Shown here one piece after another: positions 25,946 through 28,433 of a stretch of 33,737 bases of DNA. Source of the DNA: an uncultured Pelagibacteraceae bacterium (GTDB lineage Bacteria > Pseudomonadota > Alphaproteobacteria > Pelagibacterales > Pelagibacteraceae); the NCBI GenBank assembly GCA_902523095.1, contig CABYYE010000009.1:1-33737 (forward strand), read 5' to 3'. The notes under the pieces were generated by a model. That model was not told the origin of the DNA. It searched no databases and saw only the letters and a list, made by a program, of their open reading frames with translations. Numbering within the stretch: the stretch's first letter is position 1; every line of letters starts with the position of its first letter. The translations under genes and the position numbers were made by a program.

Positions 25946-27721
25946 TTAGTAAACTCTCTCTTTCGGAGGAAAATATTGAACATCGTTTGTGAGTGTTCTT
26001 GAGTGAACATCTCTGTATTTAATCTGAACTTTTTTTCCATCCTGCCAAGCTAAAGTATGTTTCATAAAATTCTTATCATCTCTTTTGCCGTAATCTTCTC
26101 GAGCATGAGCACCTCTACTCTCTTTTCTATTATATGCAGAGTCCATTGTTGTCAAAGCTTGTCTAGCTAAATTATCAAACTCTAAAGTTTCTACTAAATC
26201 TGTATTAAATAATAAGGATTTGTCTTTGACGGACACATCCTCTAGTCCTTCGTAAGGTTTTCTGATTTGATCAACACCTTCTTTTAAAGTCTTTTCAGTT
26301 CTAAAAACTGCACATTTTGATTGCATAGTTTTTTGCATTAATAATCTTAACTCTGAAGTTTTAGTTGAGCCATTTGAGTTTCTAAGTTTATCGAATCTAT
26401 CTAGACACTTATCTGTTTCACTTTGTGAAACTTCTTCATGAGGCATATCTGGCGTAACTAGTTCTTTAGCTCTTTTTGCTGCAGCTCTTCCAAATACAAC
26501 AAGATCAATTAGCGAATTAGAGCCTAGACGATTTGCGCCATGAACTGAAACACAAGCTGCTTCACCTATTGCCATTAAGCCCGGTACTGTCTTCTCTGAA
26601 CCGTTTAAGGTAAGAACTTCAGCTCTATAATTAGTAGGTATGCCACCCATGTTATAGTGAACTGTTGGTACAACTGGAATAGGTTCTTTACTCACATCTA
26701 CGTTTGCAAAAGTTTTTGCTGCCTCGGAAATACCTGGTAGTCTCTCATCTATTACAGACTGATCTAAATGATCTAAATGAAGATTAATATGATCTTTATC
26801 TTTACCCGCTCCTCTGCCTTCATTGATTTCCATTTCCATTGATCTGCTTACTACATCTCTTGAAGCTAAGTCTTTAGCGTTTGGTGCGTACCTCTCCATA
26901 AACCTTTCACCATTTCCATTTACTAAGAAACCTCCTTCACCCCTTACACCTTCAGTAATCAAACACCCTACACCATAAATACCTGTTGGATGGAATTGAA
27001 CGAATTCCATATCTTGAAGGGGCAATCCTGATCTTAAAACCATTGCGTTACCATCCCCTGTGCAAGTGTGTGCTGAGGTTGCAGAGTAGTATACTTTGCC
27101 ATAACCTCCTGTCGCAATTATAGTAATATGTGATCTAAACCTATGTATAGTTCCATCAGTTAAATTCCATGCAATTAAACCTTTGCACTCACCATTTTTC
27201 ATTATTAAATCTAAAGCAAAATATTCGATAAAAAATTCCGTGTTATGTTTTAAGGCTTGCCCATAAAGTGTGTGCAAAATGGCATGGCCTGTCCTATCTG
27301 CAGCTGCACAAGTTCGTTGAACTATTCCATTACCATAATTTTTAGTCATTCCTCCGAAGGGTCTTTGATAAATCTTTCCATCATCTGTTCTGCTAAAAGG
27401 CACACCATATCTCTCCAATTCAACTACTGCTCTTGGTGCTTCTTTACATAAGTATTCAATTGCATCTTGATCTCCTAACCAATCTGAACCTTTGACAGTA
27501 TCATACATATGCCATCTCCAGTCATCTTCACCCATGTTTCCAAGAGCAGCCGAAATTCCTCCCTGAGCAGCTGAAGTGTGACTTCTTGTAGGAAACACTT
27601 TTGATATACAAGCAGTCTTTAAACCACTTTCTGATAAACCAACTGCTGCCCTTAACCCTGATCCGCCAGCTCCTAGAACTACAACGTCGTATTCATGATC
27701 TATAATTTTATAAGCACTCAT
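25946..27721 (-). CDS. sdhA: Succinate dehydrogenase flavoprotein subunit
   Basis: Oxidises succinate to fumarate with covalently bound FAD, on the cytoplasmic face of the inner membrane. The FAD-binding start is [14 protein letters not shown] (13-26) and the flavin-linked histidine is His48 in [11 protein letters not shown]. The active-site segments [18 protein letters not shown] and [11 protein letters not shown] are intact, and the C-terminal [11 protein letters not shown] stretch is present. The length of 591 residues is standard. It follows sdhD by one base and is immediately followed by sdhB. Confidence 0.98.
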
Positions 27722-27722
27722 A

Positions 27723-28046
27723 TTATAATTTTAAAATTCCAGTAATAGTCATTAGTGGTACTATTATAGCAAATATATTTAGTATTTTATTTGCGACATT
27801 TTTGATTTTATCATCTCTTATATAGTCTTCAAATATTTCACTTATTGTTAAAGCTAAATAAAAGTAAGCAATTACAACAAATACAGAGAATAATATTTGA
27901 GATGGTTGAGATGTAAAAAAATCTACAACTAATTGATAATCATTATCATAATTTTTAACTAAGCAGATGATAAACCAGATCATAAATGGAATTAGAAATA
28001 ATGAACTTATTTTTGTAAATAACCATTTTTTTGTAGATTTATTCAT
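27723..28046 (-). CDS. sdhD: Succinate dehydrogenase membrane anchor subunit
   Basis: Membrane anchor that, with SdhC, forms the quinone site and usually the haem b site. The 107 residues contain three hydrophobic helices (about 11-30, 49-69, 86-106), the normal size and topology. The EDY motif is at 73-75, with Tyr75 at the quinone-site tyrosine position of E. coli SdhD. The haem-ligand histidine (His71 in E. coli, FYHAxLG in many alphaproteobacteria) aligns with Tyr63, and the protein contains no histidine at all. Identity is supported mainly by size, the helices, the EDY motif and the operon position between sdhC and sdhA. Confidence 0.88.
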
Positions 28047-28433
28047 TTAAATAAAATTTTTTCCCATCAAATAAAAAAAAATTGTCAGGACAAAAGAACC
28101 TATTAGAACTATTATCCCTGAGATTTTTGCTACTTTTAAATCAAAACCATATCCCACATCCCAAATTAAGTGTCTAATTTCATTTAATATATGGAAACTA
28201 AATGTCCAACATAAAAAGATAATCAAAAATTTTCCAATGGGAGAGCTCATAAATAATTTTGTAAGCTCATAATTATCTTCGCCTAATAATAGAGATAATA
28301 TCCAAAAACAAATAAAAGAAATAGCAAAAAAATTTATTACTCCCACTATTCGATGAGATATAGAAAGTAAAGATGAAATATGTAATTTATAAATTTGTAA
28401 ATGAGGACTAAGAGGATTTTTATTTTGTTCCAT
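28047..28433 (-). CDS. sdhC: Succinate dehydrogenase cytochrome b556 subunit
   Basis: Membrane subunit of succinate dehydrogenase. The N-terminal PLSPHLQIYK motif leads into SISHRIVGV, with Ser24 and Arg28 at the E. coli quinone-site Ser27 and Arg31 positions. His81 in FHILNEIRHLIWD aligns with the haem ligand His84 of E. coli. Three membrane helices are visible in 128 residues. It is the first gene of sdhCDAB; sdhD follows directly and asd lies 14 bases upstream, too close for a typical separate promoter. Confidence 0.95.
   Translation of the reverse strand: MEQNKNPLSPHLQIYKLHISSLLSISHRIVGVINFFAISFICFWILSLLLGEDNYELTKLFMSSPIGKFLIIFLCWTFSFHILNEIRHLIWDVGYGFDLKVAKISGIIVLIGSFVLTIFFYLMGKNFI

What the first reader, a model, noticed from the sequence alone, without database searches (positions are those of the whole stretch)
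27723..28046. SdhD has no histidine: haem b ligand missing
Seen: none of the 107 residues is His. Known: E. coli SdhD His71 and SdhC His84 ligate haem b; yeast is an exception with Cys in the anchor subunit. Here SdhC keeps its ligand (His81), but the SdhD position aligns with Tyr63 while the quinone-site EDY motif (73-75) is kept. The enzyme may bind haem with an unusual ligand or with only one, or may lack haem, which would save iron in iron-poor surface water.
Basis: partly seen in the sequence, partly recalled or inferred. Interest (0 to 1): 0.55.

Follow-up and report, generated by a model that had tools for sequence, protein, structure and literature searches.

The report
Haem-less complex II in SAR11 bacteria
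The succinate dehydrogenase of this abundant ocean bacterium and most of its sampled relatives has lost amino acids that hold a haem group, much as baker's yeast has done independently, so the enzyme probably works without haem.

Summary
SdhD (27723-28046, minus strand, 107 aa) has no histidine, and Tyr63 aligns with the E. coli haem ligand SdhD His71. It is neither a local quirk nor a sequencing error: in all 77 genomes of the window's genus with sdhD (of 101 searched) the site is Phe (75) or Tyr (2), never His. The glycine one turn after the SdhC ligand has become Glu85 (77 of 77), and the SdhC histidine is itself Gln or Phe in 10 of 77. Across Pelagibacterales (SAR11) ligand loss needs at least two origins, which coincide with loss of that SdhC glycine. 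In the window's clade the surviving SdhC ligand column then changes like a median column, while Glu85 and quinone-site residues stay fixed. Sister genera keep both histidines and the SdhC glycine. The window's His/Tyr pair is that of yeast complex II, which lacks haem by cryo-EM, and where a Gly-to-Glu at the matching position of the other subunit replaces a haem propionate. Best reading: a haem-free, working type C succinate:quinone reductase. No spectroscopy exists; the iron-saving motive is untested.

The parts
27723..28046 (-). sdhD, membrane anchor subunit, 107 aa
   Evidence: TIGR02968 54.8 bits; AlphaFold2 model pLDDT 94, TM (query-normalised) 0.81 to E. coli SdhD 2wu5_D
27858..27860 (-). 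codon 63 (TAT, Tyr) at the haem-ligand position (E. coli SdhD His71)
   Evidence: 75 Phe and 2 Tyr in 77 genus members
27846..27848 (-). codon 67 (ACA, Thr), four residues after the ligand position; Gly75 in E. coli; yeast Sdh4 Glu112 is likewise ligand position +4
   Evidence: yeast Glu112 replaces a glycine
27822..27827 (-). Asp74-Tyr75, quinone-site pair (E. coli SdhD Asp82-Tyr83), invariant
28011..28013 (-). codon 12 (AAA, Lys), E. coli SdhD Arg20 position; proposed partner of SdhC Glu85 by pseudo-twofold symmetry (inferred)
   Evidence: for the column, for the codon; symmetry of SdhD R20 and SdhC R31 from a passage of PMC3290573
28047..28433 (-). sdhC, cytochrome b556 subunit, 128 aa
   Evidence: TIGR02970 125.1 bits
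28191..28193 (-). codon 81 (CAT, His), E. coli SdhC His84 position; kept here, Gln/Phe in 10 of 77 genus members
28179..28181 (-). codon 85 (GAA, Glu), replaces the glycine (E. coli Gly88) of enzymes that keep both ligands
   Evidence: 77 of 77 genus members; unchanged in the 130-row clade
28350..28352 (-). codon 28 (Arg), E. coli SdhC Arg31, quinone and propionate arginine, kept
25946..27721 (-). sdhA, flavoprotein subunit
   Evidence: TIGR01816 952 bits
25169..25945 (-). sdhB, iron-sulfur subunit
   Evidence: NF004616 352.9 bits

Best explanation
This is an ordinary sdhCDAB succinate:ubiquinone oxidoreductase whose membrane anchor has lost haem b. Electrons still pass from succinate through FAD and the three Fe-S clusters to ubiquinone at the conserved SdhB/C/D site, so the haem is bypassed. 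The space and bonds of the haem are replaced by side chains: SdhC His81 and SdhD Tyr63 face each other and can hydrogen-bond directly as in yeast, and SdhC Glu85, in place of a glycine, takes the place of a propionate, probably paired with SdhD Lys12. Shown by sequence: ligand loss, the Gly-to-Glu change, their coincidence on the tree, later changes of the ligand positions, and the kept quinone-site residues of SdhC and SdhD. Inferred: actual absence of haem, the His-Tyr bond, the Glu-Lys bond, and retained activity (by analogy with yeast and a haem-free E. coli variant).
For: (1) SdhD ligand absent in 77 of 77 genus members. (2) SdhC Gly88-equivalent is Glu in 77 of 77 and unchanged in the 130 tree rows of the wider clade. 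(3) Of 180 distinct SdhC+SdhD pairs (173 Pelagibacterales, 7 other), 23 have both His and all 23 keep the SdhC glycine; 157 lack a ligand and all 157 lack it. These rows are related: the fewest origins are 2 for each trait, splitting the rows identically. (4) Where the glycine is gone the two ligand columns changed 15 times in 21.9 branch-length units, against 0 in 11.1 where it is kept (binomial p 0.002; one further change of each column falls on the two transition branches and is left out). In the window's clade (64 rows) SdhC84 changed 5 times (0.49 of SdhC columns change less) and in the sister clade (66 rows) SdhD71 changed 6 times (0.42 change less), whereas SdhC88, Ser27, Arg31, Asp95 and SdhD Asp82, Tyr83 changed 0 times in both. 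(5) In that sister clade all 66 rows have Gln at SdhC84, and 62 of 66 have no His at SdhD71 either: no ligand His at all. (6) Yeast complex II with the same His/Tyr pair has no haem in cryo-EM maps, consistent with its spectra, and its Glu112 'replaces a glycine' and substitutes a haem propionate. (7) A haem-free E. coli variant keeps a significant amount of activity and supports growth on succinate (passage of PMC3290573). (8) The genome has ferrochelatase, so the organism is not simply unable to make haem.
Against: No spectroscopy or structure of any SAR11 complex II is known to me. E. [quoted passage not shown] an E. coli SdhD His71Met crystal structure, 2wu5, whose haem content I did not check). 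The yeast parallel was long disputed: a cited 1999 title reports a stoichiometric cytochrome b562 in yeast, and the 2026 paper calls haem there a controversy. Residues that contact haem or its propionates in E. coli stay conserved (SdhC His30 75 of 77, Arg31 76 of 77, His91 76 of 77 in rows lacking SdhD His), though Arg31 is also a quinone-site residue. Not every ligand position drifts: SdhD71 changed only 2 times in the window's clade (0.22 of columns lower) and SdhC84 is fixed as Gln in the sister clade. Four sister-clade rows keep SdhD His71. Outside Pelagibacterales 3 of 75 rows with both His lack a ligand+4 glycine, so that marker is not perfect. Most of the genus has Phe63, which cannot make the yeast-type His-Tyr bond.
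Confidence: 0.8

Rival explanations
1. Haem b is still bound, five-coordinate or loosely, through SdhC His81 alone, with Phe/Tyr63 as a non-ligand on the other face.
For: SdhC84 is still His in 67 of 77 genus members, window included; propionate contacts are conserved; E. coli single-ligand mutants are reported to retain haem (title only).
Against: The His changes repeatedly (5 changes in the clade, median column rate); in the sister clade 62 of 66 rows have no ligand His at all; Glu85 replaces the glycine in all 77 members; yeast with one His has no haem.
Confidence: 0.13
2. Tyr63 (or another residue such as Glu85) is a new axial ligand, giving an unusual His/Tyr haem.
For: Tyr can ligate haem in other proteins (recalled); the window has Tyr at exactly the ligand position.
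Against: Only 2 of 77 genus members have Tyr and 75 have Phe, which cannot ligate; Glu85 is one helical turn from the ligand position; yeast His/Tyr does not hold haem.
Confidence: 0.04
3. Misannotation, frameshift or sequencing error removed the histidine.
For: His to Tyr is a single-base change.
Against: ORF intact, family match over cut-off; the 76 other genus genomes with sdhD also lack His here; 1 sdhD match in the window's own assembly.
Confidence: 0.01

Closest known systems
Saccharomyces cerevisiae complex II (Sdh3/Sdh4), haem-less by cryo-EM (PMC13066397; PDB 9qdl/9qdm)
   Same: SdhC-type His kept and Tyr at the SdhD-type ligand position; a glycine four residues after a ligand position replaced by Glu; quinone-site Arg and Tyr kept
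   Different: In yeast the Glu is on the SdhD side (Sdh4 Glu112); here it is on the SdhC side (Glu85) with Thr67 in SdhD. No yeast-type N-terminal extension of SdhD. Most of the bacterial genus has Phe, not Tyr. Independent origin is likely, because sister SAR11 genera keep both His.
E. coli succinate dehydrogenase SdhCD (type C, bis-His haem b)
   Same: SDH operon with the same four subunits, SdhD fold (TM 0.81) and quinone-site residues
   Different: Lacks SdhD His71 and SdhC Gly88 equivalents
Haem-less complex II of Tetrahymena and Perkinsus (as cited in PMC13066397)
   Same: Membrane domain without haem b
   Different: Tetrahymena SDHC/SDHD are much reduced and joined by 11 ciliate-specific subunits (passages); this one is a compact canonical SdhC/SdhD. 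The Perkinsus structure was not read.
Type D quinol:fumarate reductase (E. coli FrdABCD), no haem
   Same: No haem in the anchor (E. coli Frd lacks heme, passage)
   Different: SdhC and SdhD match the SDH families, not the Frd families; SdhA best matches TIGR01816, forward SDH

Membership tests
Type C SQR (two anchor subunits, one bis-His haem b) | Two small anchor subunits of the SdhC and SdhD families beside sdhA and sdhB | tested here: met
   SdhD model with E. coli SdhD fold
Type C SQR (two anchor subunits, one bis-His haem b) | One haem-ligating residue (His in mammals and E. coli) from each anchor subunit | tested here: not met
   SdhC His81 present, SdhD Tyr63
Type C SQR (two anchor subunits, one bis-His haem b) | Ubiquinone site residues (SdhC Ser27, Arg31; SdhD Asp82, Tyr83) | tested here: met
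Type C SQR (two anchor subunits, one bis-His haem b) | Haem b bound | not testable with these tools
   needs spectroscopy or structure
Haem-less type C SQR, yeast sub-type | SdhC-side His kept, Tyr at SdhD ligand position | tested here: met
   His81/Tyr63 in the window; but Tyr in only 2 of 77 genus members, one of which has Gln in SdhC
Haem-less type C SQR, yeast sub-type | Glu in place of Gly at SdhD ligand+4 | tested here: not met
   Thr67 in SdhD; the Gly to Glu change is at the matching SdhC position, Glu85
Haem-less type C SQR, yeast sub-type | Absence of haem | not testable with these tools
   no protein data
Type D QFR (FrdCD) | FrdC/FrdD family sequences | tested here: not met
   SdhC: Sdh_cyt 5e-32 vs Fumarate_red_D 0.04 (14.6 bits, cut-off 25); SdhD no Frd match listed

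The most novel reading that the evidence does not exclude
Haem b has been lost from complex II at least twice inside SAR11, and a substitution of the glycine one turn after a ligand (to Glu, Cys, Ser, Asp) marks haem eviction; after it the ligands are free to change. A related signature, Tyr for the SdhC His with Glu at SdhD ligand+4, recurs in four other alphaproteobacterial genomes (L173, L174, L177, L179), and yeast has the same Glu, so haem-less type C enzymes would be widespread, predictable from sequence, and include those of some of the most numerous heterotrophs in the sea.
Probability: 0.6. Interest if true: 0.75.

Novelty: new variant of a known kind. Interest (0 to 1): 0.62.

Why it matters
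Why type C complex II carries a haem that electron transfer does not seem to need is an old open question. SAR11 would supply a natural experiment: close relatives with both ligands, either one, or none, among them cultivated strains (if the contig-length matches below are right). It would also mean that complex II of a large part of ocean bacterioplankton is wrongly assumed to contain cytochrome b556, which matters for iron budgets and for naming SdhC 'cytochrome b556 subunit'.

Tried and rejected
Considered and rejected: sequencing error (the 76 other genus genomes with sdhD lack His too); a second intact sdhD in the same genome (1 match; the assembly is 75% complete); Tyr as a conserved new ligand (2 of 77). 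Cys at SdhC88 as a replacement ligand in family f2 is not general: genera g10 and g11 have Ser and Asp there. Association of ligand loss with glycine loss outside Pelagibacterales: one search reported 83 rows, of which 3 (L164, L166, L167) are Pelagibacterales that I had wrongly included; of the remaining 80 (E. coli among them), 72 have both His and both Gly, 5 have a ligand and a glycine lost, and 3 have both His but a glycine lost. Fisher with the 3 wrong rows in gave p 4e-9, which also ignores relatedness and should not be used. The tree-corrected test (99 rows, 16 of them Pelagibacterales representatives) has only 3 independent pairs on supported branches (2.7 of 3 agree on average, 0 oppose, p 0.25: underpowered). 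The zero changes of ligand columns among rows chosen for having both His is true by selection and is not used as evidence. Rows dropped: L081 (10-base dummy); 6 duplicate SdhC+SdhD rows of 186; L240, with an unread ligand codon, left out; the 27 later genus loci are not in the tree. The 30 'class' loci are the best-scoring of 275 matching genomes, so a biased control; one search was aimed at low scorers and no-match genomes to offset this (31 of 43 matched, 30 read, 3 of them Pelagibacterales). Alignment A2 contained a mistaken 10-base entry and was not used. A search for human SDHD G106D gave nothing usable. SdhC was not modelled, and the SdhC-SdhD pair cannot be modelled together here, so the Glu85-Lys12 and His81-Tyr63 contacts are unmeasured.

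Full report
OBSERVATION. The window carries, on the minus strand, leuC-leuD-leuB-asd-sdhC-sdhD-sdhA-sdhB (the leu and asd names are my reading of the ORFs, not from a search). sdhD is 27723-28046, 107 codons, no His, and scores 54.8 bits against TIGR02968 (cut-off 41.8). The window is on a contig of an 886,159-base assembly of 75% completeness with a single sdhD match. In an alignment with E. coli SdhD, Tyr63 occupies the His71 column, with EDY at 73-75. SdhC His81 sits in the His84 column.

IT IS A CLADE TRAIT. Of 101 genomes of the genus searched, 77 have an sdhD match, among them 7 of 7 that are at least 90% complete. I read all 77: at the SdhD ligand site 75 Phe, 2 Tyr (the window and L289), 0 His. 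At the SdhC ligand site 67 His, 8 Gln, 2 Phe. At the residue one turn after the SdhC ligand (E. coli Gly88) 77 Glu.

WIDER ORDER. From an order-level search (263 of 297 genomes matched) I read 69 further loci (listed in 22, 25), one of them again of the window's genus, plus three of genus g10 and 57 named Pelagibacterales contigs. States written as SdhC84/88 - SdhD71/75, counts: genus g3 (29 rows) is Q/E with SdhD F (15), Y (9), N (1) or H (4); g6 (1 row) Q/E - F/T; family f2: g8 (23 rows) Y/C - H/G, g11 (1) N/D - H/G, and g10 (3) Y/S - H/G. Genera g2, g4, g5 and g9 (13 rows) are H/G - H/G; g7 (1) is H/G - H/S. The 30 top-scoring other alphaproteobacteria and E. coli are H/G - H/G. Thus some lineages lost the SdhD ligand, others the SdhC ligand, and 25 of 29 g3 rows lost both.

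TREE. A maximum-likelihood tree of 180 distinct SdhC+SdhD rows (quick search, LG+G4), with the four trait columns left out, needs two changes for 'any ligand lost' (27 rows in f2; 130 rows in g1/g3/g6), and starred branches force at least 2. The SdhC glycine splits the rows in the same way (2 changes). Within the 130-row clade parsimony cannot fix whether a ligand went on the same branch as the glycine or soon after in each subclade, nor whether the His in four g3 rows is kept or regained. Where the glycine is kept (11.1 units of branch length) neither ligand changes; where it is gone (21.9 units) SdhC84 changes 7 times and SdhD71 8 times; one more change of each falls on the transition branches (binomial p 0.002, assuming changes proportional to branch length on this one tree). 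Per column: in the window's clade (64 rows) SdhC84 changes 5 times, near the median of SdhC columns; in the sister clade (66 rows, g3 and named relatives) SdhD71 changes 6 times, again mid-range (0.42 of SdhD columns change less). The partner already replaced is steadier: SdhD71 changes 2 times in the first clade (0.22 of columns lower) and SdhC84, Gln in all 66, changes 0 times in the second. SdhC88 (Glu) changes 0 times in both, as do Ser27, Arg31, Asp95, SdhD Asp82 and Tyr83. So the histidine left in the window's SdhC evolves like an average residue, while the quinone site and the new glutamate are guarded.

MECHANISM. In E. coli the haem propionates are held by SdhC Arg31 with SdhD Gln78 and by SdhD Arg20 with SdhC His91 and SdhB His207; SdhD Arg20 and SdhC Arg31 are equivalent under a pseudo-twofold axis (passages of PMC3290573). 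In yeast complex II, which shows no haem in the maps, consistent with its spectra, Sdh3 His156 bonds directly to Sdh4 Tyr108, and Sdh4 Glu112, four residues on, replaces a glycine and takes the place of a propionate on Sdh3 Arg97 (PMC13066397; sections 8 and 13 read in full, other passages by search). Earlier work claimed haem in yeast (a 1999 title in a reference list); the 2026 authors call it a controversy now resolved. The window has the same His/Tyr pair, and a Gly-to-Glu at the corresponding position of the other subunit. By the pseudo-twofold axis Glu85 would face SdhD Lys12 (Arg20 position). This last step is inference; the column is Lys or Arg in 77 of 77 rows lacking SdhD His, but also in 41 of 42 Pelagibacterales rows with it and 30 of 30 class rows, so it does not discriminate. 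A haem-free E. coli variant keeps significant activity and supports growth on succinate (passage), so a haem-free SAR11 enzyme can be functional. Ferrochelatase is present (2e-110), so the cell can still make haem.

STRUCTURE. AlphaFold2 of window SdhD on a 50-sequence alignment gives pLDDT 94 and helices at 3-31, 37-45, 47-75 and 79-105. The best Foldseek hits are SdhD chains of E. coli and M. smegmatis (top E 0.0056, probability 1.00; TM 0.81 to E. coli SdhD His71Met, 2wu5_D); yeast Sdh4 appears lower (9qdm_D, TM 0.61). No hit passes E 0.001. The fold is normal; the ligand site differs by sequence.

OUTSIDE THE ORDER. Of 80 non-Pelagibacterales rows (minus three misplaced), 72 keep both His and both Gly; 5 lack a ligand and a ligand+4 glycine: L173, L174, L177, L179 have SdhC Tyr with SdhD His-x3-Glu, and L155 has SdhD Tyr-x3-Ser. 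Three have both His but a changed glycine (L154, L180, L181), so the glycine is a strong but imperfect marker. Tree-corrected evidence is thin (3 independent pairs).

NAMED STRAINS. Six single-contig lengths equal genome lengths that I recall: 1,308,759 HTCC1062 (L083, Q/E - F/S: both ligands gone), 1,456,888 HTCC7211 and 1,343,202 HIMB5 (both genus g3; sdhCD not read), 1,237,371 HIMB114, 1,160,202 LSUCC0530 and 1,284,727 IMCC9063 (L061, L060, L053; all H/G - H/G). The names are recall, not tool output. If right, cultivated strains of both kinds exist.

LITERATURE. Searches for succinate dehydrogenase/heme ligand/SdhD/lack (4 papers), complex II/heme b/lacks heme/SDHD (30 of 93 listed), SAR11 + succinate dehydrogenase + heme (13 papers), Pelagibacter/complex II/heme/histidine (15 of 707 listed), SdhC + SdhD + Pelagibacterales (0 papers) and heme-free/axial ligand/alphaproteobacteria (7 papers) listed no title or abstract start on haem loss in SAR11 complex II. 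I read passages of one Pelagibacter paper (PMC4013037), with nothing on it. The library is open-access only, and listings were capped, so this is not proof of absence.

VERDICT. Observation confirmed; interpretation improved: probably a haem-less, otherwise canonical type C SQR in a clade that dismantled the haem site on both subunits, convergent with yeast. Haem absence itself remains to be measured.

Noticed in passing
L054 and L186: Genus g7 (L054) and the named L186, sister to the large haem-site-loss clade, keep both His and the SdhC glycine but already have Ser at SdhD ligand+4: a possible intermediate in which the SdhD glycine went first.
   Followed up: partly
L173, L174, L177, L179: Four alphaproteobacteria outside SAR11 have Tyr at the SdhC ligand with Glu at SdhD ligand+4, the mirror image of the SAR11 case and, for the Glu, the same relative position as yeast Glu112.
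   Followed up: partly
genomes G138, G302, G011: Same-genus genomes of 98, 88 and 86% completeness with no sdhD match in the family search; assembly gap or real absence not checked.
   Followed up: no
window 28046-28047 and 27721-27723: sdhC stop and sdhD start abut with no spacer, and sdhD and sdhA are one base apart: a very compact operon.
   Followed up: no
L066, L073, L088, L089: Four genus-g3 rows have Gln at the SdhC ligand but His at the SdhD ligand, placed among Tyr/Asn rows: either His kept with several independent losses or regained.
   Followed up: partly
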